Below, piece by piece: positions 6,784 to 62,520 of a stretch of 64,000 bases of DNA (the stretch's first letter is position 1; each line of letters opens with the position of its first letter). This stretch comes from Archivesica marissinica (Eukaryota; Mollusca; Bivalvia; Venerida; Vesicomyidae). The position numbers were made by a program, and so were the translations under genes. The stretch covers positions 30,571,563 through 30,635,562 of the forward strand of contig CM026400.1 in assembly GCA_014843695.1 (NCBI GenBank), in the 5' to 3' direction. The notes beneath the pieces were generated by a model, which searched no databases, was not told where the DNA came from, and saw nothing but the letters and a program-made list of their open reading frames with translations.

Positions 6784-6884
6784 GGGCTCATTCTAGAGGG
6801 CTATGTGGGGTGAAATTGTCACTCTAGGGACCCTGACTTCACCTGAGCACGTTTTACTCAATTTCAGAATTTCATCGACGTCTC
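6784..6884. mobile_element. MITE family D, copy 1, cut by minisatellite
   Basis: Begins GGGCTCATTCTAGAGGG and continues GGTGAAATTGTCACTCTAGG, matching the first third of family D copies at 21,000-21,301 (same orientation) and 20,606-20,897 (opposite). It stops where the 24-bp minisatellite starts. Confidence 0.65.
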
Positions 6885-12800: not shown

Positions 12801-15800
12801 TCGGGGATGCCAGGAGAGGATGTATCAGGGATGCCGGGGAGGGATGTATCGGGGATGCCAGGAGAGGATGTATCGGGGAGCCAGGAGAGGATGTATCGGG
12901 GACGCCAGGAGAGGATGTATCAGGGATGCCAGGAGAGGATGTATCAGGGATGCCAGGAGTGGATGTATCAGGGATGCCAGGAGAGGATGTATCGGGGATG
13001 CCAGGAGAGGATGTATCGGGGGGGGTGTATCGGGATGCCAGGAGAGGATGTATCGGGGACGCCAGGAGAGGATGTATCGGGGATGCCAGGAGAGGGTGTA
13101 TCGGGGATGCCAGGAGAGGGTGTATCGGGGATGCCAGGAGAGGGTGTATCGGGGATGCCAGGAGAGGATGTATCGGGGATGCCAGGAGAGGATGTATCGG
13201 GGATGCCAGGAGAGGGTGTATTGGGGATGCCAGGAGAGGATGTATCGGGGAGTCCAGGAGAGGATGTATCAGGGAGGCCAGGAGATGATGTATCAGGGAT
13301 GCCAGGAGAGGATGTATCGGGGATGCCAGGAGTGGATGTATCAGGGATGCCAGGAGAGGATGTATCGGGGATGCCAGGAGTGGATGTATCGGGGATGCCA
13401 GGAGAGGATGTATCAGGGATGCCAGGAGTGGATGTATCAGGGACGCCAGGTGAGGATGTATCGGGGATGCCAGGAGAGGATGTATCAGGGATGCCAGGAG
13501 AGGATGTATCGGGGACGCCGGGAGAGGATGTATCAGGGATGCCAGGAGTGGGTGGATGTATCAGGGACGCCAGGTGAGGATGTATCGGGGATGCCAGGAG
13601 AGGATGTATCAGGGATGCCAGGAGAGGATGTATCGGGGATGCCAGGAGTGGAAGTATCAGGGATGCCGGGAGTGGATGTATCAGGGATGCCAGGAGAGGA
13701 TGTATCAGGGACGCCAGGAGTGGATGTATCAGGGACACCAGGAGAGGATGTATCAGGGATGCCAGGAGAGGATGTATCGGGGATGCCAGGAGTGGATGTA
13801 TCAGGGATGCCGGGAGAGGATGTATCGGGGAGGCCAGGAGAGGATGTATCGGGGATGCCAGGAGAGGATGTATCGGGGAGGCCAGGAGAGGATGTATCGG
13901 GGAGGCCAGGAGAGGATGTATCGGGGATGCCAGGAGAGGATGTATCGGGGATGCCAGGAGATGATGTATCGGGGAGGCCAGGAGAGGATGTATCGGGGAG
14001 GCCAGGAGAGGATGTATCAGGGATGCCAGGAGTGGATGTATCAGGGATGCCAGGAGTGGATGTATCAGGGATGCCAGGAGAGGATGTATCGGGGATGCCA
14101 GGAGAGGATGTATCAGGGACGGGGAGAGGATGTATCGGGGATGCCAGGAGAGGATGTATCGGGGACGCCGGGAGAGGATGTATCAGGGATGCCAGGAGAG
14201 GATGTATCGGGGGACGCCAGGAGAGGATGTATCGGGGACGCCGGGAGAGGATGTATCGGGGACGCCAGGAGAGGATGTATCAGGGACGCCAGGAGAGGAT
14301 GTATCGGGGATGCCGGGAGAGGATGTATCGGGGATGCCAGGAGTGGATGTATCAGGGATGCCGGGAGAGGATGTATCAGGGACGCCAGGAGAGGATGTAT
14401 CGGGGATGCCAGGAGAGGATGTATCGGGGATGCCAGGAGATGATGTATCGGGGAGGCCAGGAGAGGATGTATCGGGGAGGCCAGGAGAGGATGTATCGGG
14501 GATGCCGGGAGAGGATGTATCGGGGATGCCAGGAGAGGATGTATCGGGGAGGCCAGGGGAGGATGTCTCAGGGATGCCAGGAGAGGGTGTATCGGGGATG
14601 CCAGGAGAGGATGTATCGGGATGCCAGGAGAGGATGTATCAGGGATGCCAGGAGAGGATGTATCGGGGATGCCAGGAGTGGATGTATCAGGGATGCCAGG
14701 AGAGGGTGTATCGGGGATGCCAGGAGTGGATGTATCAGGGATGCCAGGAGAGGATGTATCGGGGACGCCAGGAGAGGATGTATCGGGATGCCGGGAGAGG
14801 ATGTATCAGGGATGCCAGGAGAGGATGTATCGGGGATGCCAGGAGAGGATGTATCGGGGAGTCCAGGAGAGGATGTATCAGGGAGGCCAGGAGAGGATGT
14901 ATCAGGGAGGCCAGGAGAGGATGTATCAGGGATGCCAGGAGAGGATGTATCAGGGATGCCAGGAGTGGGTGGATGTATCAGGGACGCCAGGTGAGGATGT
15001 ATCGGGGATGCCAGGAGAGGATGTATCAGGGATACCAGGAGAGGATGTATCGGGGATGCCAGGAGAGGATGTATCGGGGACGCCGGGAGAGGATGTATCA
15101 GGGTCGCCAGGAGAGGATGTATCAGGGATGCCAGGAGTGGATGTATCAGGGACGCCAGGAGAGGATGTATCAGGGATGCCAGGAGAGGATGTATCAGGGA
15201 TGCCAGGAGAGGATGTATCAGGGATGCCAGGAGAGGAAGTATCAGGGATGCCAGGAGAGGATGTATCGGAGATGCCAGGAGTGGATGTATCAGGGATGCC
15301 GGGAGTGGATGTATCAGGGATGCCAGGAGAGGATGTATCAGGGACGCCAGGAGTGGATGTATCAGGGACGCCAGGAGAGGATGTATCAGGGACGCCAGGA
15401 GAGGATGTATCGGGGATGCCAGGAGTGGATGTATCAGGGATGCCGGGAGAGGATGTATCGGGGAGGCCAGGAGAGGATGTATCGGGGATGCCAGGAGAGG
15501 ATGTATCGGGGAGGCCAGGAGAGGATGTATCGGGGAGGCCAGGAGAGGATGTATCAGGGACGCCAGGAGAGGATGTATCAGGGATGCCAGGAGAGGATGT
15601 ATCGGGGATGCCAGGAGAGGATGTATCAGGGACTTCGGGAGAGGATGTATCAGGGATGCCAGGAGAGGATGTATCGGGGATGCCAGGAGAGGATGTATCG
15701 GGGATGCCAGGAGAGGGTGTATCGGGGATGCCAGGAGAGTGTATCGGGATGCCAGGAGAGGATGTATCGGGATGCCAGGAGAGGTGTGGGTGTATCAGGG

Positions 15801-18800
15801 ATGCCAGGAGAGGATGTATCGGGGATGCCAGGAGAGGATGTATCGGGATGCCAGGAGAGGATGTATCAGGGATGCCAGGAGAGGATGTATCGGGGATGCC
15901 AGGAGAGGATGTATCGGGGAGTCCAGGAGAGGATGTATCAGGGAGGCCAGGAGAGGATGTATCAGGGAGGCCAGGAGAGGATGTATCAGGGATGCCAGGA
16001 GAGGATGTATCAGGGATGCCAGGAGTGGGTGGATGTATCAGGGACGCCAGGTGAGGATGTATCGGGGATGCCAGGAGAGGATGTATCAGGGATGCCAGGA
16101 GAGGATGTATCAGGGATGCCAGGAGAGGATGTATCGGGATGCCAGGAGTGGATGTATCAGGGATGCCGGGAGTGGATGTATCAGGGATGCCAGGAGAGGA
16201 TGTATCAGGGACGCCAGGAGTGGATGTATCAGGGACGCCAGGAGAGGATGTATCAGGGACGCCAGGAGAGGATGTATCGGGGATGCCAGGAGTGGATGTA
16301 TCAGGGATGCCGGGAGAGGATGTATCGGGGATGCCAGGAGAGGATGTATCGGGGATGCCAGGAGAGGATGTATCGGGGAGGCCAGGAGAGGATGTATCGG
16401 GGATGCCAGGAGAGGATGTATCGGGGATGCCAGGAGTGGATGTATCAGGGATGCCAGGAGAGGATGTATCGGGGATGCCAGGAGAGGATGTATCAGGGAG
16501 CCGGAGAGGATGTATCAGGGATGCCAGGAGAGGATGTATCGGGGACGCCAGGAGAGATGTATCGGGGATGCCAGGAGAGGATGTATCGGGGATGCCAGGA
16601 GAGGATGTATCAGGGATGCCAGGAGAGGATGTATCGGGGATGCCAGGAGAGGATGTATCGGGGACGCCGGGAGAGGATGTATCAGGGATGCCAGGAGAGG
16701 ATGTATCGGGGACGCCAGGAGAGGATGTATCGGGGACGCCGGGAGAGGATGTATCGGGGACGCCAGGAGAGGATGTATCAGGGACGCCAGGAGAGGATGT
16801 ATCGGGGATGCCGGGAGAGGATGTATCGGGGATGCCAGGAGTGGATGTATCAGGGATGCCGGGAGAGGATGTATCAGGGACGCCAGGAGAGGATGTATCG
16901 GGGATGCCAGGAGAGGATGTATCGGGGATGCCAGGAGATGATGTATCGGGGAGGCCAGGAGAGGATGTATCGGGGAGGCCAGGAGAGGATGTATCGGGGA
17001 TGCCGGGAGAGGATGTATCGGGGATGCCAGGAGAGGATGTATCGGGGAGGCCAGGGGAGGATGTCTCAGGGATGCCAGGAGAGGGTGTATCGGGGATGCC
17101 AGGAGAGGATGTATCGGGGATGCCAGGAGAGGATGTATCAGGGATGCCAGGAGAGGATGTATCGGGGATGCCAGGAGTGGATGTATCAGGGATGCCAGGA
17201 GAGGGTGTATCGGGGATGCCAGGAGTGGATGTATCAGGGATGCCAGGAGAGGATGTATCGGGGACGCCAGGAGAGGATGTATCGGGATGCCGGGAGAGGA
17301 TGTATCAGGGATGCCAGGAGAGGATGTATCGGGGATGCCAGGAGAGGATGTATCGGGGAGTCCAGGAGAGGATGTATCAGGGAGGCCAGGAGAGGATGTA
17401 TCAGGGAGGCCAGGAGAGGATGTATCAGGGATGCCAGGAGAGGATGTATCAGGGATGCCAGGAGTGGGTGGATGTATCAGGGACGCCAGGTGAGGATGTA
17501 TCGGGGATGCCAGGAGAGGATGTATCAGGGATGCCAGGAGAGGATGTATCAGGGATGCCAGGAGAGGATGTATCAGGGATGCCAGGAGTGGATGTATCAG
17601 GGATGCCGGGAGTGGATGTATCAGGGATGCCAGGAGAGGATGTATCAGGGACGCCAGGAGTGGATGTATCAGGGACGCCAGGAGAGGATGTATCAGGGAC
17701 GCCAGGAGAGGATGTATCGGGGATGCCAGGAGTGGATGTATCAGGGATGCCGGGAGAGGATGTATCGGGGAGGCCAGGAGAGGATGTATCGGGGATGCCA
17801 GGAGAGGATGTATCGGGGAGGCCAGGAGAGGATGTATCGGGGAGGCCAGGAGAGGATGTATCAGGGACGCCAGGAGTGGATGTATCAGGGATGCCAGGAG
17901 AGGATGTATCGGGGATGCCAGGAGAGGATGTATCAGGGACTTCGGGAGAGGATGTATCAGGGATGCCAGGAGAGGATGTATCGGGGACGCCAGGAGAGCA
18001 TGTATCGGGGATGCCAGGAGAGGGTGTATCGGGGATGCCAGGAGAGGGTGTATCGGGGATGCCAGGAGAGGGTGTATCGGGGATGCCAGGAGAGGGTGTA
18101 TCGGGGATGCCAGGAGAGGGTGTATCGGGGATGCCAGGAGAGGATGTATCGAGGACGCCAGAAGAGGATGTATCGGGGATGCCAGGAGAGGGTGTATCGG
18201 GGATGCCAGGAGAGGGTGTATCGGGGACGCCGGGAGAGGATGTATCGGGGATGCCAGGAGAGGATGTATCGGGGATGCCAGGAGATGATGTATCAGGGAC
18301 GCCAGGAGAGGATGTATCGGGGATGCCAGGAGTGGATGTATCAGGGATGCCAGGAGATGATGTATCGGGGAGGCCAGGAGAGGATGTATCGGGGAGGCCA
18401 GGAGAGGATGTATCGGGGATGCCGGGAGAGGATGTATCGGGGGCCAGGAGAGGATGTATCGGGATGCCAGGAGAGGATGTATCAGGGATGCCAGGAGAGG
18501 ATGTATCGGGGATGCCAGGAGAGGATGTATCGGGATGCCAGGAGAGGATGTATCAGGGATGCCAGGAGAGGATGTATCAGGGATGCCAGGAGAGGATGTA
18601 TCAGGGATGCCAGGAGAGGATGTATCAGGGATGCCAGGAGAGGATGTATCGGGGATGCCAGGAGAGGATGTATCAGGGATGCCAGGAGAGGATGTATCAG
18701 GGATGCCAGGAGAGGATGTATCAGGGATGCCAGGAGAGGATGTATCAGGGATGCCAGGAGGAGTATCGGGAGCCAGGAGGGATGTATCGGGAGCCAGGAG

Positions 18801-20567
18801 GATGTATCAGGGACGCCAGGAGAGGATGTATCAGGGACGCCAGGAGAGGATGTATCAGGGATGCCAGGAGAGGATGTATCAGGGATGCCAGGAGAGGATG
18901 TATCGGGGATGCCAGGAGAGGATGTATCGGGGATGCCAGGAGAGGATGTATCGGGGATGCCAGGAGAGGATGTATCGGGGATGCCAGGAGAGGATGTATC
19001 AGGGATGCCAGGGGAGGATGTATCAGGGATGCCAGGAGAGGATGTATCAGGGATGCCAGGAGTGGGTGGATGTATCAGGGACGCCAGGTGAGGATGTATC
19101 GGGGATGCCAGGAGAGGATGTATCAGGGACGCCAGGAGAGGATGTATCAGGGATACCAGGAGAGGATGTATCGGGGATGCCAGGAGAGGATATATCGGGG
19201 ACGCCGGGAGAGGATGTATCGGGGACGCCAGGAGTGGATGTATCAGGGACGCCAGGAGAGGATGTATCAGGGATGCCAGGAGAGGATGTATCAGGGATGC
19301 CAGGAGAGGATGTATCAGGGATGCCAGGAGAGGATGTATCGGGGATGCCAGGAGAGGGTGTATCGGGGATGCCAGGAGAGGATGTATCGAGGACGCCAGA
19401 AGATGATGTATCGGGGATGCCAGGAGAGGGTGTATCGGGGATGCCAGGAGAGGGTGTATCGGGGACGCCGGGAGAGGATGCATCGGGGATGCCAGGAGAG
19501 GATGTATCAGGGATGCCAGGAGAGGATGTATCGGGGATGCCAGGAGAGGATGTATCGGGGAGTCCAGGAGAGGATGTATCAGGGAGGCCAGGAGATGATG
19601 TATCAGGGATGCCAGGAGAGGATGTATCGGGGATGCCAGGAGTGGATATATCAGGAATGCCAGGAGAGGATGTATCGGGGATGCCAGGAGTGGATGTATC
19701 AGGGATGCCAGGAGAGGATGTATCAGGGATGCCAGGAGTGGGTGGATGTATCAGGGACGCCAGGTGAGGATGTATCGGGGATGCCAGGAGAGGATGTATC
19801 AGGGATGCCAGGAGAGGATGTATCGGGGACGCCGGGAGAGGATGTATCAGGGATGCCAGGAGTGGGTGGATGTATCAGGGACGCCAGGTGAGGATGTATC
19901 GGGGATGCCAGGAGAGGATGTATCAGGGATGCCAGGAGAGGATGTATCGGGGATGCCAGGAGTGGAAGTATCAGGGATGCCGGGAGTGGATGTATCAGGG
20001 ATGCCAGGAGAGGATGTATCAGGGACGCCAGGAGTGGATGTATCAGGGACACCAGGAGAGGATGTATCAGGGATGCCAGGAGAGGATGTATCGGGGATGC
20101 CAGGAGTGGATGTATCAGGGATGCCAGGAGAGGATGTATCGGGGATGCCAGGAGAGGATGTATCGGGGATGCCAGGAGAGGATGTATCGGGGAGGCCAGG
20201 AGAGGATGTATCGGGGATGCCAGGAGAGGATGTATCGGGGATGCCAGGAGAGGATGTATCGGGGATGCCAGGAGAGGATGTATCGGGGACGCCAGGAGAG
20301 GATGTATCAGGGACGCCAGGAGAGGATGTATCAGGGATGCCAGGAGAGGATGTATCGGGGATGCCAGGAGTGGATGTATCAGGGATGCCAGGAGTGGATG
20401 TATCAGGGATGCCAGGAGTGGATGTATCAGGGATGCCAGGAGAGGATGTATCAGGGACGCCAGGAGTGGATGTATCAGGGATGCCAGGAGAGGATGTATC
20501 AGGGACGCCAGGAGTGGATGTATCGGGGATGCCAGGAGGGGATGTATCGGGGATGCCAGGAGGGGTG
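6885..20567. repeat. Giant 24-bp minisatellite in endophilin-B intron 1
   Basis: About 13.7 kb (including a 1-kb gap) of a 24-bp unit, consensus GCCAGGAGAGGATGTATCRG plus GGAT/C/G, roughly 530 copies. Variable positions are A/G in TATCRGGG, T/C/G before GCC, A/T in GAGWGG and A/G in GGRTGTA. Some units are 22-23 or 28 bp, so frames switch. Because 24 is divisible by 3, every frame stays open for hundreds of codons, giving repetitive octapeptides (MPGEDVSG, GCQERMYR, DARRGCIR). These are not genes: they occur in all frames and on both strands with no codon constraint. The plus strand is purine-rich. Confidence 0.97.
10530..11529. other. Assembly gap, 1,000 N
   Basis: Exactly 1,000 undetermined bases inside the minisatellite, with the array on both sides. 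A round number implies a placeholder, so the true array length is unknown. Confidence 0.99.
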
Positions 20568-20605
20568 TGTAAGTGTGAAAGGGCCCTTAGTGGACATATA
20601 AATAC

Positions 20606-24945: not shown

Positions 24946-25186
24946 TTAACCCTTTCAACACCAAGTAACTCACATGGACTGGTCCATGATATTCATAAAC
25001 CAATAAATGAATCAGAAAATCACATTTGGACAAGTTCATTTATCAAAATGGGTAATTATGTCTAAAAATAGTCATATCACTGGCAAAAAGTGCAGATCCT
25101 GATGAGACGGCTCGTCACGAGCCGGCTCATCTGGATCTACACTTTTTGTAAGCCTATTTAGAGGTATGTGGTGTTGAAAGGGTTAA
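24946..25186 (+). mobile_element. MITE family B, copy 3
   Basis: TTAACCCTTTCAACACCAAG to GTGTTGAAAGGGTTAA, 241 bp, the cleanest copy of the family. The core GAGACGGCTCGTCACGAGCC is a near-perfect hairpin flanked by CCTGATGA and TCATCTGGATC arms. Confidence 0.88.
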
Positions 25187-29479: not shown

Positions 29480-29627
29480 AGCACCATGGCCATGAAAGTC
29501 CACATAGACGAGACAAATTGTGGACCTCTCTGCCAACATCCATCATGTTGGCAATCCAATACCAGACAAGCTAAAGGTTTTCCTAAATTTAGGGCCAGTC
29601 AACCTTCTCTACCTGACATTGAACTCG
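29480..29627 (+). CDS. Unknown gene, exon a (likely start codon)
   Basis: Acceptor TTTTATTCAG precedes the exon and the donor is G|GTAAGA. An ATG at 29,486 sits in a good CACCATGG context and opens MAMKVHIDETNCGPLCQHP, ending LPDIEL plus one base. Calling this ATG the start is an inference; the six bases before it would be 5' UTR after an untranslated exon. Cys- and His-bearing but without a recognisable zinc motif. I do not recognise the protein. Phase continuity with three further exons argues that it is real. Confidence 0.6.
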
Positions 29628-30307: not shown

Positions 30308-30452
30308 ATTTGCCCACATTGAAGGTGTGTAACATGCTAGATGATTACGGCAATGACCACAGAGATTTGTTTCCCTCGAAGTACGGTGGTAAACCCTCGC
30401 ACAAGAGGAGCGAGCTCTATTCAAGTCTGGAGAAACCTATCCGAGCACAGAG
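30308..30452 (+). CDS. Unknown gene, exon b
   Basis: Acceptor TATATTTCAG, donor AG|GTACAT. The first two bases complete the Asp codon left open by exon a; it then encodes LPTLKVCNMLDDYGNDHRDL and ends KPIRAQ plus two bases. Basic and polar, no domain recognised. Matching phases on both sides support the splicing. The nearby SINE-H and retroelement fragment are intronic. Confidence 0.65.
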
Positions 30453-34237: not shown

Positions 34238-34322
34238 TATTAAAGTCACAAGGGCTCCACGGACCTCGCCAAAATCAGGATCCGCTGCAGAAGCACCCAT
34301 GTCCCGTTTTAAAGTGGTCGAG
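34238..34322 (+). CDS. Unknown gene, exon c
   Basis: Acceptor CTCTGTTTCAG, donor GAG|GTAATT, 85 bases. The first base completes a Ser codon begun in exon b; it encodes IKVTRAPRTSPKSGSAAEAP and MSRFKVVE, leaving in phase 0. Low-complexity basic/Ser stretch, probably disordered. It lies between two minisatellites (31 bp upstream, 38 bp downstream). Confidence 0.6.
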
Positions 34323-34594
34323 GTAATTAGTCTTGTTACTTTATTACTTGACTGCGAGTTGGGCTTTCTGATTCTGAATGTCGGCAATCTTCGTGTGATC
34401 CAATAGTTAGCCTCACTGGCTGACAATCATACATGTACACAGGGTTCCCTCTGTCTGAATGTTTGTCTGCGCCACATCTGTCGCTAATTGAAAAACACTG
34501 GAGCCAATTTAAAAAAACTTGGAGCCAACTAAGAGCCATAGTTCACAAATAAATATTTGAAGCCATGAATTAAAAATATATATATACTTTACTA

Positions 34595-35928
34595 TATGCA
34601 CAGTTTGTATGAAAGATGTACCATGTTTATTACATGCACAGTTTGTATGAAAGACGTACCATGTTTATTACATGCACAGTTTGTATGAAAGACGTACCAT
34701 GTTTACTACATGCACAGTTTGTATGAAAGACGTACCTTTTTTATTACATGCACAGTTTGTATGAAAGACGTACCATGTTTATTACATGCACAGTTTGTAT
34801 GAAAGACGTACCTTTTTTATTACATGCACAGTTTGTATGAAAGACGTACCTTTTTTATTACATGCACAGTTTGTATGAAAGACGTACCTTTTTTATTACA
34901 TGCACAGTTTGTATGAAAGACGTACCATGTTTATTACATGCACAGTTTGTATGAAAGACGTACCATGTTTATTACATGCACAGTTTGTATGAAAGACGTA
35001 CCATGTTTATTACATGCACAGTTTGTATGAAAGACGTACCTTTTTTATTACATGCACAGTTTGTATGAAAGACGTACCTTTTTTATTACATGCACAGTTT
35101 GTATGAAAGACGTACCATGTTTATTACATGCACAGTTTGTATGAAAGACGTACCATGTTTATTACATGCACAGTTTGTATGAAAGACGTACCATGTTTAT
35201 TACATGCACAGTTTGTATGAAAGACGTACCATGTTTATTACATGCACAGTTTGTATGAAAGACGTACCATGTTTATTACATGCACAGTTTGTATGAAAGA
35301 CGTACCATGTTTATTACATGCACAGTTTGTATGAAAGACGTACCATGTTTATTACATGCACAGTTTGTATGAAAGACGTACCATGTTTATTACATGCACA
35401 GTTTGTATGAAAGACGTACCATGTTTATTACATGCACAGTTTGTATGAAAGACGTACCATGTTTATTACATGCACAGTTTGTATGAAAGACGTACCATGT
35501 TTATTACATGCACAGTTTGTATGAAAGACGTACCATGTTTATTACATGCACAGTTTGTATGAAAGACGTACCATGTTTATTACATGCACAGTTTGTATGA
35601 AAGACGTACCATGTTTATTACATGCACAGTTTGTATGAAAGACGTACCATGTTTATTACATGCACAGTTTGTATGAAAGACGTACCATTTTTATTACATG
35701 CACAGTTTGTATGAAAGACGTACCATGTTTATTACATGCACAGTTTGTATGAAAGACGTACCATGTTTATTACATGCACAGTTTGTATGAAAGACGTACC
35801 ATGTTTATTACATGCACAGTTTGTATGAAAGACGTACCATGTTTATTACATGCACAGTTTGTATGAAAGACGTACCATGTTTATTACATGCACAGTTTGT
35901 ATGAAAGACGTACCATGTTTATTACATT
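34595..35928. repeat. Minisatellite, 38-bp unit, resembling a 3' splice site
   Basis: About 35 near-identical units of TTTATTACATGCACAGTTTG plus TATGAAAGACGTACCATG (variant TTT for CATG). The last unit runs into TTTATTACATTCAG, the acceptor of exon d. Each unit therefore carries TTATTACATGCACAG, a lookalike of that acceptor. Confidence 0.95.
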
Positions 35929-35931
35929 CAG

Positions 35932-36372
35932 GGGACCTGGGATGAAACATTTGTACCAAAGTCATATTGTGGAGATGTTGTGCATTGTGTATTACAGGTG
36001 CAGGAAGTCATATTGTGGAGATGTTGTGCATTGTGTATTACAGGTGCAGGAAGTCATATTGTGGAGATGTTGTGCATTGTGTATTACAGGTGCAGGAAGT
36101 CATATTGTGGAGATGTTGTGCATTGTGTATTACAGGTGCAGGAAGTCATATTGTGGAGATGTTGTGCATTGTGTATTACAGGTGCAGGAAGTCATATTGT
36201 GGAGATGTTGTGCATTGTGTATTACAGGTGCAGGAAGTCATATTGTGGAGATGTTGTGCATTGTGTATTACAGGTGCAGGAAGTCATATTGTGGAGATGT
36301 TGTGCATTGTGTATTACAGGTGCAGGAAGTTGTGTTGTGTTTGGTGGGGTATTTGACCCTCAGGACCTTCAG
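35932..36372. repeat. 46-bp minisatellite between duplicated exon starts
   Basis: The first 34 or so bases copy the start of exon d (GGGACCTGGGATGAAACATT and on). About eight 46-bp units of GTCATATTGTGGAGATGTTG plus TGCATTGTGTATTACAGGTG and CAGGAA follow, then a unique stretch and the second exon start at 36,373. The block is 441 bp, exactly 147 codons, and open in the exon frame. Each unit has TATTACAG|GTGCAG, another acceptor-like site. Confidence 0.9.
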
Positions 36373-36476
36373 GGGACCTGGGATGAAACATTTGTACCAA
36401 AGTCATACTATGTTTGGGTACCCAACAAGAAGAAGAAGAGGCATCGAAGAACACTGGCCAAAACTATGCAAGAGAG
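36373..36476 (+). CDS. Unknown gene, exon d
   Basis: Acceptor GACCTTCAG, donor AG|GTGAAT. In phase 0 from exon c it reads GTWDETFVPKSYYVWVPN and then a basic stretch KKKKRHRRT ending MQE plus two bases. If the upstream duplicated acceptor (35,931) is used, the exon becomes 35,932-36,476 with 147 extra codons and the same downstream frame. No later exon was identified; the 37.5-kb gap may hide one. Function unknown; the Lys/Arg run could be a nuclear signal or a nucleic-acid contact, a guess only. Confidence 0.6.
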
Positions 36477-36480
36477 GTGA

Positions 36481-36721
36481 ATAACCCATTCAACACCCAG
36501 TAACTGACATAGACTTATCCATGATATTTTTAGACCAATAAATTAATAAGAAAATTACATTTGGACCAGTTCATTTATCAAAATGGGTAATTTTGTCTAC
36601 AAATAGTAATAGTACTGGCAAAATGTGCAGATCCTGATGAGGCGGCTCATCATGAGCTGGCTCATTTGGATCCACACATTTTGTAATCCTATTTAGATGT
36701 CTGTGGTGTTGAAAGGGTTAA
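36481..36721 (+). mobile_element. MITE family B, copy 4
   Basis: ATAACCCATTCAACACCCAG to GTGTTGAAAGGGTTA, starting 4 bases after exon d's donor junction. Core GGCGGCTCATCATGAGCTGG. The close spacing means the element forms the first bases of the following intron. Confidence 0.82.
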
Positions 36722-37516: not shown

Positions 37517-38516
37517 NNNNNNNNNNNNNNNNNNNNNNNNNNNNNNNNNNNNNNNNNNNNNNNNNNNNNNNNNNNNNNNNNNNNNNNNNNNNNNNNNNNN
37601 NNNNNNNNNNNNNNNNNNNNNNNNNNNNNNNNNNNNNNNNNNNNNNNNNNNNNNNNNNNNNNNNNNNNNNNNNNNNNNNNNNNNNNNNNNNNNNNNNNNN
37701 NNNNNNNNNNNNNNNNNNNNNNNNNNNNNNNNNNNNNNNNNNNNNNNNNNNNNNNNNNNNNNNNNNNNNNNNNNNNNNNNNNNNNNNNNNNNNNNNNNNN
37801 NNNNNNNNNNNNNNNNNNNNNNNNNNNNNNNNNNNNNNNNNNNNNNNNNNNNNNNNNNNNNNNNNNNNNNNNNNNNNNNNNNNNNNNNNNNNNNNNNNNN
37901 NNNNNNNNNNNNNNNNNNNNNNNNNNNNNNNNNNNNNNNNNNNNNNNNNNNNNNNNNNNNNNNNNNNNNNNNNNNNNNNNNNNNNNNNNNNNNNNNNNNN
38001 NNNNNNNNNNNNNNNNNNNNNNNNNNNNNNNNNNNNNNNNNNNNNNNNNNNNNNNNNNNNNNNNNNNNNNNNNNNNNNNNNNNNNNNNNNNNNNNNNNNN
38101 NNNNNNNNNNNNNNNNNNNNNNNNNNNNNNNNNNNNNNNNNNNNNNNNNNNNNNNNNNNNNNNNNNNNNNNNNNNNNNNNNNNNNNNNNNNNNNNNNNNN
38201 NNNNNNNNNNNNNNNNNNNNNNNNNNNNNNNNNNNNNNNNNNNNNNNNNNNNNNNNNNNNNNNNNNNNNNNNNNNNNNNNNNNNNNNNNNNNNNNNNNNN
38301 NNNNNNNNNNNNNNNNNNNNNNNNNNNNNNNNNNNNNNNNNNNNNNNNNNNNNNNNNNNNNNNNNNNNNNNNNNNNNNNNNNNNNNNNNNNNNNNNNNNN
38401 NNNNNNNNNNNNNNNNNNNNNNNNNNNNNNNNNNNNNNNNNNNNNNNNNNNNNNNNNNNNNNNNNNNNNNNNNNNNNNNNNNNNNNNNNNNNNNNNNNNN
38501 NNNNNNNNNNNNNNNN
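37517..38516. other. Assembly gap, 1,000 N
   Basis: Exactly 1,000 undetermined bases, a placeholder. The right border is inside a tandem array; the left border is unique sequence. Confidence 0.99.
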
Positions 38517-40552: not shown

Positions 40553-42704
40553 ATGGCGCCCGTTTGTTTACATACAAAGAGACGAGAGACGCCCTTACTA
40601 CTGTGGTTGCAATATATTGAAATGGTGGAATTACTGAGAGAATTCATAAAAGCAGAGCGAACAGGAAACTGGCAGTTACACCTGAAGACATTAAGGGCCA
40701 TGTTACCATATTTCACAGCATCTGGGCATAACTTGTATGCCAAATCAGCCTATTTGTATCTAGTGAAAATGAATGCCTTGCAGAAAACACACCCAAAGCT
40801 CTATGAATATTTCATGAAAAGGTTTCATGTTGTTAGACAGAGTGATAGGTATTGGGCTGGATTGTCGACAGATCTAGTGATTGAGCAGGTGCTTATGTGG
40901 AGTTTGAAGAGTGCAGGGGGACTGACTCGAGGTAGAGGAATGACTGAGATACAAAGAGCCGTGTGGGTACTCTCTCGACCTGCAACATCGTCTATTAATG
41001 AAGCAATGCAAACCTTCTCTGGTGCGATATATACCTCAAGTGAACAACACAAAGATACATACTTATCAGTGCGAAAGCGATATAAAAAAGACATACAAGT
41101 GGTAACTGAGTATCTACTTGAACGAAACCCATTCAAAACCGAATATGATCTCAAAAGCATAACAAGTGGGGTAGTGTCGTATGACAGTACTGCTGATCAT
41201 GCAAAGCATATTGGAGAGAATATTGTGACAAAGATGGCTGGCCAAAAAGTAAACGAGTTCTCGTTCAAGAGGAAAGATGCAATCGTGCCTATGAATGATA
41301 CATCTGCGTTCAAAATTGACGAAGATACAGTCAAGATCGACCCTCAGTTGTTGTTCCAGAGATTAGTTAGTGCGGCTAACAGAATGACGAATGAACCCGA
41401 TCTTCCACATACATATGAGTTATGCACACACCCACCGGCATTATTTGAATCATCCAGACAAATGAGAGTAGCAGACAAACCTGTATTAGCGAATGCTATG
41501 AAGTCAGCTGACAATCCTAGTCCGAGAACACATGATCCTGGTGATAGTTATCATGTTGTTGATGGTGGTATGTTGCTGCAGTGGATTCCTTGGGAAAGTG
41601 GTCAGATATTTGAAGACATTTGTTCTACATACGTCCAGTTTGTGCAGTCTAGGTACACCAATTGCATTGTTGCCTTTGATGGTTATGACAATGGGCCAAC
41701 TACTAAAGACAGCACTCATGGTCGTAGAACTGCAGGAATGGTTGGTACAGAAGTAAAATTTACCCAATCCAGCACATTTAGAGGGAAAAAGAAAACATTT
41801 CTAGCTAACCCAACAAACAAACCGCTCTTCATAAACATGTTGTCAGGGAAAATGAAGTGAGGGCATAGAAACATCACACGCCATTGCCGATGCCGATTTA
41901 CTCATCGTATTAACAGCTGTACGCCGTTCACAGTCAAAACCAACCATATTGGTCGGAGATGACACTGACCTATTAGTGTTATTGTGTTATCACACATCAC
42001 ATGACTCGCACCCTGTATATCTACAGCCTAGGCCCAAATTCAACCGTAGTATATGTTGGGATATACACAAACTACAAGCGTACCTTGGCGACGATGTTTG
42101 TAGGAACATATTGTTCTTACATGCTGTGTTGGGGTGCGATACGACGTCAAAAGTGTATGGCTTAGGAAAAGGGACTGCTCTGAAAGCATTTGAAAAGAGT
42201 GTAGTATTCCGTCATGTTGCATCAGTGTTTCATACACCACCAACAGAGGTGACAAAAGAGAATATTGTCAGCAGTGGGGAACAAGCTCTCGTGTATCTAT
42301 ACAAAGGCAGTCGTGGAGAAACATTGGACAAGTTTGTTGAGCAAGTTTGTCGAAAAGGTAGCCAAAAGTACCATGTTTGTTGATCCGAAACAACTCCCCC
42401 CCCAACCTCTGATGCTGCAGAAATCCACAGCTTGCGAGTTTACCTGCAAGTACAGGACTGGAAATGTGATGATGCACTGAATCCAACGGACTGGGGCTGG
42501 GAACTAGTTGGAGACAGGCTATTCCCTGTGACAACTAGGAAAGGTCCAGCTCCAGTACATATATTGAAGGTTGTGCGTTGTACTTGTTATAGAGGCTGTA
42601 AAACAAAGGCATGCAGCTGCAAAAAAGTTGGCCTTGAATGTAGTTCCTGCAAAGGATTTAGTTGTGAAAATTCAGTACATCCAGACTTTGAACCTGACTA
42701 CTAG
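40553..42704 (+). pseudogene. PIN/FEN1-like + CXC multicopy family protein, frameshifted
   Basis: I recognise a large, intronless, uncharacterised family common in corals, bivalves and other invertebrates. N-terminal markers: SGGLT-like SAGGLTRGRGMTEIQRAVW, then STSSEQHKD-like YTSSEQHKD and KIDPQLLFQRL. A PIN/FEN1-like core follows: VDGGMLLQWIPW, VAFDGYDN, KPTILVGDDTDLLVL and HAVLGCDTTSKVYGLGKGTA, with acidic residues expected to bind metal. The tail CTCYRGCKTKACSCKKVG resembles CXC/tesmin motifs. The frame breaks near 41,855 (frame 2 to 0), near 42,350 (0 to 1) and in the C run near 42,400 (back to 0), ending at 42,704. Breaks may be decay or indel errors. Function unknown; nuclease activity is inferred from fold only. 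Confidence 0.75.
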
Positions 42705-47607: not shown

Positions 47608-48825
47608 TCACTGGATGTCACTGGCTTTGATAAAGCTGTTAAATTTTGATGGAAAATTCTTCCACTTAACGTAAATGCGCTTGTTCCGCCCCCGGCCAAC
47701 TGTCTTAAGAACACGTTCAATTTTCCAAATCTGGTCTGGCTTAATGTCCACTTTCTGCAGTTCACTTTGATAAAATGTTCCTTTAATCTCCTCATTGTTC
47801 ATGTCTTTCAATCGGTAAATTGGTATTGTTCCTCTATGATAGCGTTTGTATATTAAAAACGTTTCTCCCGTATATGTTTCGTCGTACGCTCTGGAAAATA
47901 CATGTTTTAAGTGACTGATGCGCACATAATCACCAATTTTATATTTGAATGTTTTGAGTTTGCCATTGTTCTTGCTCTGTGCGAAATATGTGGACAGCCT
48001 GACTGTTTCTTGATTGTCTTCGTTGACGTCGGCTGGAGCCATATCTATGGTCCGGTGATAGGTTTGGTTATAACTATCAGCCATGCTCTGTAGTATCGGT
48101 AGGTACTCGTAATCACCCTTGTGTGTGAAATAACGATTCAGTTTCGTCTTGATGGTCAAGATTGCCCTCTCAGAAGTTGAAGCCTTAGTTTCGTTTTGCG
48201 TAGGGCAGTATTTGATTACGTATTCTTTCATGACTATCTGTACCTTTTTAGCACGGAACTCTTGACCTGAAATGATAGAAAATGCATATGTAATACATAT
48301 CATAAAGCACCAGTAATACATAGAGAATAGTTTATACACATGTAGGAACAGCTTTACCTAATAGATAATGGATAATTAAGCATATACCTTACCTTTATCG
48401 GTAATGAGCCTGGATGGTGACCTTCCAGATTTGGTGAAGACATCTTGAAAGGCGGTTGCTACATCTCCCCCTGTTTTAGATTTCAATGGTCGCATCCAAA
48501 CTGTTTTGCTGAATGTGTCTATGATTAATAGCACATATTTATAGCCTCGATTCCATTTCGCATATTTCACCATGTCCATTAGGTCTGCCATCCATAAATC
48601 GTCCGTTCCTGCACTGATCACGTGGTTTCGTCGAAAGCGTCGCCTCACGGGTTTATGCAGGCTATATGACTCTTGGTTTTGTAAGAATCTTCGTATCCTA
48701 TACATTCCTAGTTTGTATTTTCACTCTCGCTGTACCACTTTGTACAATTTCTGAGGACCAGCATAACTGGCGGGGTGTGAAGGATCATAGTAGATAGTCT
48801 TTAAATAATCCTCCCACGGAGCCAT
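47608..48825 (-). pseudogene. Polinton integrase with chromodomain, one stop codon
   Basis: Start ATG at 48,825 (MAPWEDYLKTIYYDPSHPA). The frame continues to 48,393, then a 126-bp intron (48,392-48,267, GTAAGG...TTTCAG) joins exon 2 to the stop at 47,608. The retroviral integrase core is visible: DLWMADL (first Asp), RLITDKG|QEF across the splice (second Asp) and ASTSERAILTIK (Glu), then an SH3-like part (YKIGDYVRISH) and a chromodomain (IWKIERVL..VKWKNFPSKFNSFI). About 363 codons, near the usual length. A TGA at 48,721-48,723 interrupts exon 1 where relatives have a Gly codon. The enzyme would insert the element; the stop may be decay or error. Confidence 0.88.
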
Positions 48826-48883
48826 GTCTGAACGCGTCTATGGCATAAGCACAAATGAAGTTATATGTCTCTGCACCACACAT

Positions 48884-50585
48884 TTATTGTTCATCGGCAT
48901 CGCCGCTTTCATCGCCGCTGTTTTCATCATCCGATTCATCAAATAAATCCTGGAATTTTGCCTTATTCTTGCGCAGGACACGTTTTACAGCAGATGTTAG
49001 GTTGATACCCTTTGATGTGTCGATCTCTGACATAATCTTGCGATGTATGCCACTTGTTCTGAGAGGAATAATGTAGCTTTCAATGAGCTGACTGTATAGC
49101 TCGATGAATTTACTTTGATCGTAATTCTCCATTCTTTCTTCTGCTAACCGTGTGGCCTCTTTGTCGGGTTCACCATTGGCTACGTATTGGTCATAAAACG
49201 TTCTGTACTTGTCTTCGCCTCTTTCCCGGGCTAGTTTCCACAGCGCAGTGTATGCCTCATTCTCTTCAATATCGTCGTAGCTGTCCATACGTTCTAGGTT
49301 TCTCATAGGTTCATCATTAACTTCTAACTTCATCCGTTTAAGCACTGGTTCTTCATTCTCAGGACATTGCCCGCGTTTAATGTGTCGTTGCACATCGTGC
49401 GTTGTGTCGAACAATAGCCCGCAATCGTCGCAAGCTTGTCCTTTATCAGCCATGTTTCCAGATAACGATTGATCTGATTCAATAGTTTCCTCTTTAGTTC
49501 CGATGTGCACTGTTTGAGTTCCAACTGACGAATGATGAATATCTCTAGCAAAGTCGTCTTTTATAGTATGTTGGCCAGTCATGTGATTAGGAGTTTGTTC
49601 ATATTTGGATTCATCTGCCATGATACATTTTAATCTTTGGTCCTCGGTAGTAAATGGCTTTAAGCCAATTAGTAGATACCCATATGGGTACTTGGTAGCT
49701 TTCTCAAACGTTTTCATGAATTTGTCTGTATGCCCAGGATACATTTGTCTAGCCAATGTCATGACGGATTGCCTGTCTACTGGATTGTTAAACAGTACTA
49801 TATAATGACAATTCCTCCGCTGCGTTGGGTCTTTGTTTCCAAACATGTTCTGAAGGATGGAAATCACTGATAACGATCTGTGACTTGAACCTTCTGTAAA
49901 CAAATCAGTGATGCGTTTATATTTGCCAGCTTCACTAAATAGGTCGTCCAATACGAGCAAGTTGTTTATGTAGGGATTAAAGTAGTCATCATCCTCCAAA
50001 TCTGAAGGTATGCCTCGGATAATTTCCACTATGGGCGACACTGTCCTTTGAATCACAGTGTACAATGGCTGCCACCTCTTGTAAAGCCACACTATTCTCT
50101 GTATGTCCGGATGGATCCGTATGCTATGATTCTGCAGCAAATCTTTGACAAACGTAGTCTTCCCACATGCTGAAATACAAACACTTTTATTAGTAAACAC
50201 TTGTAAGCTATATGTGCTTGTTTTTAATACAATTAAGACCATACAATGCATAATATTATTTTAATAAAAATATAGATGTAATAGGCTTACCCGTTGGGCC
50301 CGATATCATCATGGTAAATGGATGCTGTAACACAGCCATGTCCACTATCTGCTGCCGTTCCGTTTGAATGTGAGGTGGCGGCGGTGGATACGATTGACTG
50401 CTCTGCGGCGGCGGTGGCGGCGGTGGTGGTGGATACGCTTGACTGCTCGGCGGCGGTGGGTGCGCTTCATTGACCACAGTCCTATGATCTAGTTCATCAA
50501 AATTATGTCTGTGTCTCTGATGTCTTAACATAACATCTCTCCTCGAAAAGTCTTGCTTACATTCAGGACAGCTTACAGAATACAT
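48884..50585 (-). CDS. Polinton packaging-type ATPase, N-terminal zinc finger
   Basis: Exon 1 (50,585-50,291) encodes MYSVSCPECKQDFSRRDVML with a C2H2 finger, a long Pro-rich linker and HPFTMMISGPT. A 121-bp intron (50,290-50,170) splits a codon in the Walker A motif, which reads GPTACGKTTF when spliced. Exon 2 (50,169-48,884) has Walker B NNLLVLDDLF, the family block DLFTEGSSHRSLSVIS, NPVDRQSVMTLARQMYPG, a second finger (CDDCGLLFDTTHDVQRHIK) and an acidic C-terminus. About 527 residues, open throughout. This FtsK/HerA-class ATPase is thought to pump DNA into a capsid; no capsid gene is present here. Splicing inferred from GT-AG sites and motif repair. Confidence 0.88.
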
Positions 50586-50654
50586 GTTGCTCCCCGGATG
50601 ATTAACTTCAGAATGATGGCATAGACCTTACTCCGGCTGTTAAGTTATTTGTAC

Positions 50655-54600: not shown

Positions 54601-55136
54601 GAACGAGGGCATTTATCATCTTGTAAAATAATAGCAATGTGTTTGTTGTGTCGAGTGCCTAGGGTTTCCCATCCACATTGAAGATAACGTTGACGGATTG
54701 AGACAGGTTTTGTACAGCCTGTATCGATACGAGCTGCCTCGTTCTGAATGTTGTCCAATTCATCATTTTCGTATTGAGTGGTTTGTCCCATATTACACGA
54801 GCATACCCCAAGTGGCCTGACAACAGACACATACATTATTTCAAACGATGTCCAGTCCTGTATATATACGGAGTCAAAAAAGAAACGATACCAAACTAAA
54901 AATGACGTAAAACGGATAAAACCATAGAAAGGTTTAATATATTATTACGTATCAGTACCGGGTATCTTATTGCAACGTCAGCCAACCATAAACACAGGTA
55001 AATAAACACCCGATAATCCTGGAACGCTGAATTTCCGAAAACAAGGACAACTTCCAGCACATGTACAAATCGGAAAACCGGTTTATTGTACTGCATTATC
55101 GATGAAAAACACCTTACATACCCATTGTTACCTCTA

Positions 55137-55401
55137 TTTTATGTTATGATTCGGGTTTTACGCCTGCATCAGCACCATTTTGGGCTATATCGCCGGCGGG
55201 CAGTTTACCTAACAACACCTTTCCTGGGCAGGCTCCAGCGGTTAACCAGTACTTGGGTGCACCAACCTCCGTAAGAAACTGCCAACTTTTTCATATAAAT
55301 GAGACACGGCCTGAGCGGGGCTCGAACCCGTGACCATCAGTGATGATAGGTTACAGTGGTATACAAGTCAGCGACCTTAACCACTCGACCATGGAGGCGG
55401 A
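55137..55401 (-). mobile_element. tRNA-derived SINE inside the Tc1 element
   Basis: Flanked by a 15-bp exact direct repeat, CCATTGTTACCTCTA (55,122-55,136 and 55,402-55,416). Minus-strand head CATGGTCGAGTGGTTAAGG (A box), extra-arm-like section and B box GGGTTCGAGCCCCGC. Body has AGTACTGGTTAACCGCTGG, shared with the SINE near 29.3 kb. The insertion lies in the transposon 5' leader, just before the transposase ATG. Confidence 0.9.
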
Positions 55402-55421
55402 CCATTGTTACCTCTAACAAA

Positions 55422-56407
55422 ATGCCTAGGCTAAACCGCAATCAGAGAATGCGTGCCATTGGCATGATTGACGGCGGTTTACGTCAGCATGACGTCGCAA
55501 ATCGACTCAGGGTTACGCGGATCACGATAACACGTCTACTTCGACGTTATCGAACACATGGATCGGTGGACGACCGTCCAAGATCTGGGACCGTCACATT
55601 CGGACGTCACATTTACGTGACCGGTTCCTACCTGCTACGCACACAGCTGCCGTTACTCCTGGGATGACCAACAATCGCATCAGTGCACAAACAGTCAGGA
55701 ACCGGCTCGGTGAACGTGGCATTCATGCCTATTGGCCATACGTTGGACCCATCCTGACACGACGTCACCGTGACGTACGGCGGGAATGGACGACGGAACG
55801 TGCTCGCTGGACTCGGTTACAGTGGAATTCGGTGATGTTTAGCGATGAATCGCGGTTCTGTTTGCGTCGAGCGGATGGCAGAGAGCGGGTATATCGCAGA
55901 CGCGGTGAACGTTACGCCGACGCATGTGTACGTCAGGTCGATCTGTTCGGGGGCGGAAGCGTTATGGCGTGGGGCGGTATCACCTTCGGCAGTCGCACTG
56001 AACTGTTAGTGGTGGACGGGAACCTAAACGCCCAGCGGTACTGTGATGAGATCCTTGCGCCAGTTGTTGTGCCGTTCTTTAACGCCAACAGAAACGTCAC
56101 ACTGTTCCAACAGGACAACGCCAGGTGTCATACTGCTCGGATTTCCACCACATTATTGGAGCAGAACAATATTGAAACCCTGCCGTGGCCTGCTTTGTCA
56201 CCAGACTTGTCACCCATAGAACATTTGTGGGATACGTTAGACCGCCGCGTCAGACGACGTCAGCCGGTAACGTTAAACCAACTGAGGGATGTTTTGCGTC
56301 AGGAGTGGACACATATTGACCAGCAAGAGATTCAGACACTCTTCCGTTCGATGCGACGGCGGTGCATTGCAGTGAGAGACGCAAATGGTGCCCATACTCG
56401 GTATTGA
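55422..56407 (+). pseudogene. Tc1 transposase (DD34E), frameshifted
   Basis: Starts MPRLNRNQRMRAIGMIDGG with the paired-like helix-turn-helix (ITITRLLRRYRTHGS). A deletion near 55,590, after RPRSG, shifts the frame; the second part opens at 55,664 and runs to the stop at 56,407. It contains FSDESRF (first Asp), the GGGSVMAWGG loop, FQQDNARCHTA (second Asp) and, 34 residues on, the Glu of SPIEHLWD. The catalytic triad is intact but the protein cannot be made from one frame. Without the deletion it would be about 340 residues, normal for Tc1. It would have cut and pasted the element at TA sites. Confidence 0.93.
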
Positions 56408-57016
56408 CGTCTGTGTGAAAACTCCATTAGACCCCTGTCCGACGAATTACGTCATCACGCAGCAGACAGTTTCGGAGGCTCATTATGCTTTATGTACTAC
56501 TCTTTCAAACATATTGGACTATCATCTTATGAATTTTCAAAGAATTTTCTTAATAAATGTTGAAATTATAGACACATAAACACCAGGTATCGTTTCTTTT
56601 TTGACTCAGTATATTTGAGACGTCTCATTATGTTTACTCTGGTTACAGGTACATGCTTTCCATTTCATATGATTTATCTGATGGTGCTAGGTACAGTCGT
56701 CAGAGATCAGAATACCTAGGTGATTATGGAAATCAACAGACGGAATAATGGAATTTGACATGTGAAGAGCTTAATGCACATGTTTTAGCCGTTTCCGAGA
56801 TATTTTGATTTAGCCGAATTGAAAGTGACGAGCCATTTTTTCGACCATGCTGAAATCTTGTCAATGTCAGATTGGAGTTAAAACAATGTGGTCAACAATA
56901 ATGAACAGACTGGTATCATCAGCAGATATTTATGTAGGACTCAATATCGGTAACAATATCATTTCTATAGATATAAAAACAGCAATGGACAAACTATTGA
57001 CCCTTCGGGAACGCCG

Positions 57017-61896: not shown

Positions 61897-62022
61897 CTAA
61901 TTAACAAACATGGAGTGAGTAAAATCGGCGTAGTCGAATGTGTCTGGTATGACACGTCCTGTTCGATCCACGTACGGTTTCATACGTCCGATACAATAGT
62001 CTGCTTGATCCTTCGTAAGATT
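61897..62022 (-). CDS. SPTAN1: Alpha-spectrin, last coding exon
   Basis: Acceptor GTCTGTTTCAG; 41 codons plus TAG at 61,899-61,897. It encodes NLTKDQADYCIGRMKPYVD and ends FDYADFTHSMFVN. The LT.EQADYC..RMKPYVD and FDY..FT.S.FVN pattern is the C-terminal EF-hand end of alpha-spectrin; alpha-actinin ends differently (..ALYGESDL). The domain closes the calmodulin-like module near the actin-binding end of the spectrin tetramer. Some normally invariant positions differ (DRTGRVIPD), which may mean a divergent paralogue. Confidence 0.9.
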   Translation of the reverse strand, partial: NLTKDQADYCIGRMKPYVDRTGRVIPDTFDYADFTHSMFVN

Positions 62023-62035
62023 CTGAAACAGACAA

Positions 62036-62206
62036 AAAGCACACGTAACTATATAAGTACTTATTGTACACGTAACTATTTATGTACTTATTGTACACGT
62101 AACTATTTGAGTACTTATTGTACACGTAACTATTTGAGTACTTATTGTACACGTAACTATTTGAGTACTTATTGTACACGTAACTATTTGAGTACTTATT
62201 GTAGTC
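62036..62206. repeat. Minisatellite, 27-bp unit, in last spectrin intron
   Basis: Six units of GTACACGTAACTATTTGAGT plus ACTTATT. It starts 14 bases from the acceptor of the last exon and so occupies the usual branch-point/polypyrimidine region. Confidence 0.92.
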
Positions 62207-62372
62207 TAGTAAGCTATACAACGCACAAACAGCTCCGTTTAAACGGCACATAACATGACTTAACAATTAACTGGGCGTGCTCGGAAAGCATCGATACGTA
62301 TTGCAATGTTACAAATAGTATTTCACCCAATGTTAGATCTTGAAAGCTTCGCTCGAGAGCTTTGATACTTAC

Positions 62373-62520
62373 AGCATAAAGTTCTTGTGACGTTATAAAT
62401 GGTTTTTCTCCGGATGTTAGAGCTCGGAATGCTTGTTCCACTTCCGAGCTCGACTGGACGTTCTCTGTCTCTCGGCTGATCATAAACGCCATATATTCTT
62501 GTAGCGACACAAGGCCATCC
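62373..62520 (-). CDS. SPTAN1: Alpha-spectrin, penultimate coding exon
   Basis: Acceptor TTGGTTTCAG, donor GCT|GTAAGT, 148 bases (one completing base plus 49 codons). It encodes DGLVSLQEYMAFMISRETEN, VEQAFRALTSGEKPFIT and SQELYA. VSLQEYMAFMISRETENV is a near-diagnostic alpha-spectrin EF-hand sequence. It leaves in phase 0 and joins the last exon directly (ELYA|NLTKDQADYC). Upstream exons of this very long gene are outside the window. Confidence 0.93.

What the first reader, a model, noticed from the sequence alone, without database searches (positions are those of the whole stretch)
35932..36476. In-frame minisatellite between two copies of a host exon start
The sequence TTCAG|GGGACCTGGGATG occurs at 35,927 and 36,368, each with an acceptor AG. 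The 441 bp between them hold about eight 46-bp units yet contain no stop in the exon frame, and 441 is exactly 147 codons. Either acceptor therefore gives the same downstream frame: a 104-bp exon, or a 545-bp exon with 147 extra codons. As 46 is not divisible by three, three frames are used in rotation and all stay open. This could be a recently expanded, polymorphic coding minisatellite or a tolerated exon duplication.
Basis: partly seen in the sequence, partly recalled or inferred. Interest (0 to 1): 0.78.

Follow-up and report, generated by a model that had tools for sequence, protein, structure and literature searches.

The report
Clam splice-boundary minisatellite ("mirage")
In a gene of a clam-like bivalve, the short stretch where an intron ends and an exon begins has been copied eight times in a row, so the repeat carries a ladder of splice sites; similar repeats have been described in amphioxus.

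Summary
The raw observation holds: TTCAGGGGACCTGGGATG lies at 35,927 and 36,368, 441 bp apart, with a 40-bp identical block, eight identical 46-bp units and an open frame. The reading as "two copies of an exon start" does not. Four bivalve relatives show that TTCAG|GGG falls inside continuous coding sequence (FDPQDLQGTW in Dreissena). The homologous exon start lies 11 codons upstream, ATTACAG|GTGCAGGAAGT. The unit carries exactly this boundary: 31 nt of intron end with the acceptor, 11 nt of exon start, and 4 nt from further inside the exon, joined at a shared AAGT. The upstream block is an exon fragment. This is a tandem array spanning an intron-exon boundary, a kind called "mirages" in amphioxus. 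Eight of eight copies keep the acceptor, but only three give the native frame. A G/T-only 20-bp stretch puts the last acceptor out of frame; it equals the boundary with every A and C missing, unexplained and possibly an assembly error. No RNA or relative's DNA could be examined. The neighbouring 38-bp array may be an older array of the same boundary (suggestive only).

The parts
29486..29627 (+). coding exon a (start codon at 29,486)
   Evidence: tblastn of P0121-P0124, 65-81% identity; donor CTCG|gtaaga
30308..30452 (+). coding exon b
   Evidence: tblastn 52-79% identity; phase fits exon a
34238..34322 (+). coding exon c, ends in phase 0 at ...FKVVE
   Evidence: tblastn 64-77% identity with 3 of 4 relatives (P0121-P0123; P0124 gave no hit above 28 bits here); exons a+b+c = 372 nt, open
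34588..35927 (+). 38-bp array in intron c-d (35 copies), possibly an older decayed boundary array
   Evidence: TRF 98% matches; two-block similarity to boundary plus exon d: 1 of 2000 shuffles and 0 of 413 window segments as good; weaker under lenient scoring
35927..35966 (+). first copy of the 40-bp block: a fragment of exon d (codons QGTWDETFVPKS), not an exon start
   Evidence: identical to 36,368-36,407; matches inside the relatives' coding sequence
35967..36330 (+). boundary array: eight copies of the 31-nt intron 3' end, each followed by GTGCAGGAAGT, and (first seven) CATA; first exon bases 35,998, 36,044, 36,090, 36,136, 36,182, 36,228, 36,274, 36,320
   Evidence: 8 exact copies of the 31-mer, 46-bp period; VQEV follows 8 of 8 acceptors
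36331..36350 (+). G/T-only 20-bp stretch with no counterpart in the 4 relatives' proteins; equals the boundary stretch with all ten A and C letters absent
36351..36476 (+). body of exon d (its Val codon begins at 36,349: VFDPQDLQGTWDETFVPKSYYVWVPN...), donor GAG|gtgaat at 36,477
   Evidence: tblastn 62-80% identity, E 7e-11 to 4e-16, from 36,349

Best explanation
An intron-exon-boundary minisatellite ("mirage" type) in a bivalve gene related to Mercenaria LOC123549036. Shown by sequence: the 46-bp unit is the intron 3' end with its acceptor (31 nt), the first 11 nt of exon d, and 4 nt (CATA) that also occur further inside the exon after a second AAGT. The block at 35,927 is an exon fragment followed directly by the intron end, i.e. 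a tandem-duplication junction. Inferred: a segment from the intron end into the exon was duplicated in tandem; a deletion between two AAGTs in one copy made the short unit; the unit then grew to eight copies recently, since they are identical. It is most likely a by-product of replication slippage or template switching with no function of its own, lying in or at the end of the intron, with splicing choosing among equivalent acceptors (inferred, no RNA). In this assembled allele the array acceptors that give VQEV in the native frame are 35,998, 36,136 and 36,274, adding 114, 68 or 22 residues; 36,364 and 36,373 are in-frame but drop 8 or 11 conserved residues.
For: 4 of 4 relatives read VQEV(F/Y)(D/E)P(E/Q)DL directly after the exon c residues, and GTG CAG GAA GT follows TTACAG in 8 of 8 units. 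Exon c ends in phase 0, as this needs. Eight exact copies of the 31-nt intron end, the first directly after the exon fragment ...GTCATA. In a rough matrix the array acceptor scores 2.40, between the gene's own acceptors of exon b (-2.77) and exon c (3.02). Published mirages span boundaries in the same way and often hold AG/GT signals (passages).
Against: The last acceptor (36,320) is out of frame because of the 20-bp stretch, so the expected native junction cannot be made from this sequence. No RNA and no DNA of a relative was available; the own-genome search did not complete. An open frame through all units would be expected if the array were coding, and is a coincidence if it is intronic. 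The rough matrix ranks 36,373 and 36,364 above the array acceptors. The 38-bp array's kinship is only suggestive: under two lenient scorings 6 and 69 of 1262 window segments did as well against exon d.
Confidence: 0.85

Rival explanations
1. One reading: exon c joins to 35,932 and the 147 extra codons are translated.
For: 441 is 147 codons and the frame stays open; a stop-free unit is a 0.4-4.4% event.
Against: The AG at 35,932 lies inside continuous coding sequence in 4 of 4 relatives, and the join would lose VQEVFDPQDLQ at its own place. Its rough acceptor score is below all 8 array acceptors and below 36,364 and 36,373. The period is not a multiple of three, so only one unit number in three keeps the frame. 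The encoded 46-residue repeat looks Cys-rich and hydrophobic; none of 5 weak Pfam matches reaches its cut-off.
Confidence: 0.06
2. Array intronic, with a new exon start: since the last boundary copy is spoiled, splicing has moved to the cryptic AGs 36,364 or 36,373, giving a 113-bp exon or the reader's 104-bp exon, minus 8 or 11 residues. (Not exclusive with the boundary-array reading.)
For: These are ranks 1 (36,373) and 2 (36,364) of 128 AGs in a rough recalled matrix and both are in-frame.
Against: Drops residues kept in 4 of 4 relatives; needs 8 fair upstream acceptors to be skipped; the matrix is weak (exon b's own acceptor scores -2.77).
Confidence: 0.25
3. Assembly or consensus error: the true allele has an intact last boundary; the 20-bp G/T-only stretch, and perhaps the unit count, are artefacts. 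(Not exclusive with the boundary-array reading.)
For: The 20 bp equal the boundary's 30 nt with every A and C missing, about 3e-5 by chance, and no mutational process known to me does that. Two exact 1000-N gaps lie in the window, and the gene's residues after about 172 were not found in it.
Against: Surrounding sequence keeps A and C normally. An earlier, stringent local comparison of the 20 bp with the boundary was unremarkable (995 of 5000 shuffles as good). No reads could be checked.
Confidence: 0.4
4. The gene copy is a truncated pseudogene, so frame and splicing no longer matter.
For: Only residues 1-172 of about 1000 were found in the window; the last acceptor is out of frame.
Against: Exons a-d are open, with splice sites at a-c and 71% identity to Mercenaria; a scaffold gap 1 kb downstream explains the missing part as well.
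Confidence: 0.15

Closest known systems
Mirages of amphioxus (globins BflGb6 and BflGb9; Adh3, PGBD5 and troponin C as described or cited there), PMC3087553 (passages) and PMC3902484 (one passage)
   Same: Tandem repeats that span an intron-exon boundary and copy splice signals; BflGb6 copies the 3' end of an intron plus the 5' part of an exon, as here.
   Different: A bivalve, not a lancelet. BflGb6 units are 150-160 bp and 81-100% alike; here 46 bp and identical (Adh3 units are given as 10-72 bp). The last acceptor is out of frame in this assembly. Regular splicing, suggested there by RT-PCR, was not testable here.
Intron gain by tandem duplication of AG|GY proto-splice sites (PMC2891723, passages)
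   Same: Duplicated AG|GT (ACAG|GTGCAG) inside a repeated segment.
   Different: No new intron is shown; the array sits at an existing intron end.
Coding minisatellites such as Prdm9 zinc fingers (search listing only)
   Same: Homogeneous tandem repeat next to or in coding sequence.
   Different: Period not a multiple of three; no sign of translation.

Membership tests
mirage (boundary-spanning minisatellite) | repeat unit spans an intron-exon boundary | tested here: met
   31 nt intron end + 11 nt exon start in 8 of 8 copies; exon start inferred from 4 of 4 relatives' proteins and the phase of exon c
[quoted passage not shown]
   ACAG|GTGCAG in 8 of 8
mirage (boundary-spanning minisatellite) | regular splicing is kept despite the array | not testable with these tools
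   no RNA; the last acceptor is out of frame in the assembled sequence
mirage (boundary-spanning minisatellite) | unit number differs between haplotypes | not testable with these tools
   one sequence only; own-genome search not answered
coding minisatellite | period a multiple of three, so unit gain or loss keeps the frame (recalled) | tested here: not met
   46 bp; in a series of 0-12 units only n = 2, 5, 8, 11 keep the native frame
   the position is inside continuous coding sequence: LQ-GT in Dreissena, LR-GT in Mactra, LS-RT in Mercenaria, LH-SS in Sinanodonta; no intron between VFDPQDLQ and GTWDE in the window
DUF4647 (PF15504) | reaches the family's curated cut-off | tested here: not met
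   26.2 bits against 27 for exons a-d; 0 of 3 relatives scanned (P0122 not scanned) listed at E <= 0.01

The most novel reading that the evidence does not exclude
The array is a working splice ladder: eight interchangeable acceptors, every third one in frame, yield proteins with 22, 68 or 114 extra residues after VQEV. Each change of unit number rotates which acceptors are productive. The neighbouring 38-bp array would be an earlier, worn-out round of the same process, making this exon start a repeated source of boundary arrays outside chordates.
Probability: 0.12. Interest if true: 0.65.

Novelty: new member of a known kind. Interest (0 to 1): 0.42.

Why it matters
Boundary-spanning minisatellites have been offered as a route to new introns (PMC3087553, passages). 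In the listings of my literature searches the cases called mirages were lancelet ones; the library is partial, so this is weak evidence. A bivalve case with identical units, a readable duplication junction and perhaps a decaying neighbour would show that the process is not peculiar to lancelets. It would also give a locus where acceptor choice among identical sites can be counted directly. It warns, too, that a repeated coding motif ending in AG can pass for a splice acceptor.

Tried and rejected
Rejected: TTCAG|GGG as exon start. Rejected as primary: an insertion with a 40-bp target-site duplication, which I considered before the relatives were found; the 'inserted' sequence turned out to hold the exon's own boundary. 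The 401 bp between the blocks, the doubled unit and the tail match nothing but themselves in the window at E <= 0.01. DUF4647 / C9orf43 identity (C9orf43 is recalled, from no call): 26.2 bits, just under the cut-off of 27, and not listed for the 3 relatives scanned, so the name is dropped. PDB sequence searches of exon peptides: best E 0.72 and 1.5. First homolog search: 43 candidates, none at E <= 0.1; the second, with a longer nominal length, gave 4 of 74 candidates, E 2e-68 to 8e-38. An earthworm metallothionein paper (passages) has intronic minisatellites and an exon duplication; the passages describe no boundary-spanning unit. The 20-bp stretch was first taken as a plain insertion; a stringent local score showed nothing (995 of 5000), a gap-tolerant one chosen afterwards showed the A/C-less match. 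46-bp unit against exon d: not above chance; 38-bp unit against the tail: not above chance.

Full report
Observation. The motif TTCAGGGGACCTGGGATG occurs at 35,927 and 36,368, 441 bp apart. The identical block is 40 bp (35,927-35,966 and 36,368-36,407), with no identity further left. TRF gives 8.1 copies of a 46-bp unit at 35,959-36,330, 100% matches; 8 of 8 full units are identical. The frame reading GTWDETF stays open to the donor at 36,477. A unit without any stop trinucleotide is a 0.4% (single-base shuffle), 0.8% (dinucleotide shuffle) or 4.4% (46-mers from chosen parts of the window) event.

The gene. Exons a (29,486-29,627), b (30,308-30,452) and c (34,238-34,322) join to 372 nt, open, ending in phase 0 at ...FKVVE. 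A protein search found four relatives among 74 candidates, all bivalves: Mercenaria mercenaria LOC123549036 (71%), Mactra antiquata (69%), Dreissena polymorpha (64%), Sinanodonta woodiana (51%), 997-1036 aa. I take them as orthologs; no tree was made. The host is therefore probably a bivalve, of the species found closest to Mercenaria and Mactra; Mercenaria is in Venerida. Only residues 1 to about 172 lie in the window. For later residues nothing above 25.4 bits was found outside 6,801-20,599; inside it, one search showed only low-complexity matches to the 24-bp array (up to 39.7 bits). An exact 1000-N gap begins 1 kb downstream of exon d.

Where the exon begins. In 4 of 4 relatives the residues after those of exon c are VQEV(F/Y)(D/E)P(E/Q)DL, two residues, then (T/S)WD and PK.YYVWVP. 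The window reads VFDPQDLQGTWDETFVPKSYYVWVPN without a break from 36,349. That start is GTG CAG GAA GT (VQEV), and it follows TTGTGTATTACAG in 8 of 8 units. The relatives' exon borders were not seen, only their proteins.

Anatomy. The 31-nt intron end TTGTGGAGATGTTGTGCATTGTGTATTACAG occurs exactly eight times, at 35,967 and every 46 bp to 36,289. Each copy is followed by the exon's first 11 nt, GTGCAGGAAGT, and the first seven then by CATA. CATA is what follows the second AAGT of the exon (CCAAAGT|CATA), so the unit is explained by a deletion between two AAGTs. The block at 35,927-35,966 is the inner part of the exon up to the same GTCATA, followed directly by the intron end: a tandem-duplication junction. 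The order of events (duplication, internal deletion, growth to eight units, trimming of the left copy against the 38-bp array) is inferred.

Frames and acceptors. From 35,998, 36,136 and 36,274 the downstream frame is native, with 114, 68 and 22 residues inserted after VQEV. The other five array acceptors are out of frame: 36,090 and 36,228 run into stops, while 36,044, 36,182 and the last, 36,320, stay open in a wrong frame to the end of exon d. 36,364 and 36,373 are in-frame but lack 8 and 11 conserved residues. Several lower-scoring AGs within the array are also in frame and open. In a rough splice matrix that I wrote from memory, 36,373 scores 2.93, 36,364 2.55, each array acceptor 2.40 and 35,932 1.99 (ranks 1, 2, 3-10, 11 of 128 AGs); the gene's own acceptors score 3.02 (exon c) and -2.77 (exon b), so the matrix is weak, and exon a's site was scored one base off.

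The odd 20 bp. Between the last GTGCAGGAAGT and ATTTGACC lie 20 bp of G and T only (36,331-36,350). They equal, letter for letter, the boundary stretch TGTGCATTGTGTATTACAGGTGCAGGAAGT with its ten A and C letters absent. With a gap-tolerant score, 0 of 20,000 shuffles and 0 of 30 G/T-rich 20-mers of the window aligned as well; with a stringent local score 995 of 5000 shuffles did. The chance for a random G/T 20-mer to match any of the 31 such strings of the unit is 3e-5; the test was devised after seeing the match. It may be a decayed ninth unit or a consensus error. I have no mechanism for it.

The 38-bp neighbour. The intronic 38-bp unit resembles exon d (score 26; 0 of 1262 window segments and 1 of 3000 shuffles reach it; but 6 and 69 of 1262 segments under two more lenient scorings). 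Split in two blocks it fits the boundary plus the exon interior (38; 1 of 2000 shuffles, 0 of 413 segments). I found this after looking at seven pairings, so it is a lead, not a result.

What is known. [quoted passage not shown] BflGb6 copies the intron 3' end and exon 5' part, with 6 and 3 units in two haplotypes, and RT-PCR suggested regular splicing (PMC3087553, passages; PGBD5 paper PMC3902484, one passage). The original Adh3 paper was not held (a wrong PubMed id was tried). The listings of my searches showed no other animal group for which I recognised the term; listings only, from an open-access library.

Verdict. The boundary array is well supported (0.85). How it is spliced is open. 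I hold it to be a by-product of tandem duplication rather than a coding repeat: a new member of a known kind, in a phylum for which I found no earlier case.

Noticed in passing
36331-36350: G/T-only 20 bp that equals the adjacent boundary repeat with every A and C missing; with flanking GT a 22-nt run, the longest of the 3 G/T-only runs listed (6,880-20,570 left out).
   Followed up: partly
61897-62520: Minus-strand 3' end of an alpha-spectrin-like gene (Pfam Ca-insensitive EF hand; the name spectrin is recalled); its last intron ends in a 27-bp, 6-copy array lying about 18 bp from the acceptor.
   Followed up: partly
6883-20562: 13.7-kb array of a 24-bp unit (also reported at 48 and 72 bp), interrupted by an exact 1000-N gap at 10,530-11,529.
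   Followed up: no
37517-38516: Exact 1000-N gap just after exon d; the gene's residues after about 172 were not found in the window, so the join may be wrong or the gene broken.
   Followed up: partly
40553-41857: Repeat-element ORF with 686 relatives at E <= 0.001, 120 listed (named ones include Mytilus, Mya, Patella, Actinostola, Porites); two are named 'Tesmin/TSO1-like CXC domain-containing'.
   Followed up: partly
54873-56605: Tc1/mariner-like transposase ORF (55,493-56,407; resemblance recalled) between inverted copies of GTCAAAAAAGAAACGATACC, seen by eye.
   Followed up: no
47608-50627: Minus-strand ORFs that look like integrase and packaging-type ATPase genes of a Maverick/Polinton-like element (recalled resemblance; not tested).
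   Followed up: no
36482-36721: Interspersed repeat right after exon d, with relatives at 24,947, 1,709, 6,486 (-), 63,694 (-) and 63,998 (-).
   Followed up: no
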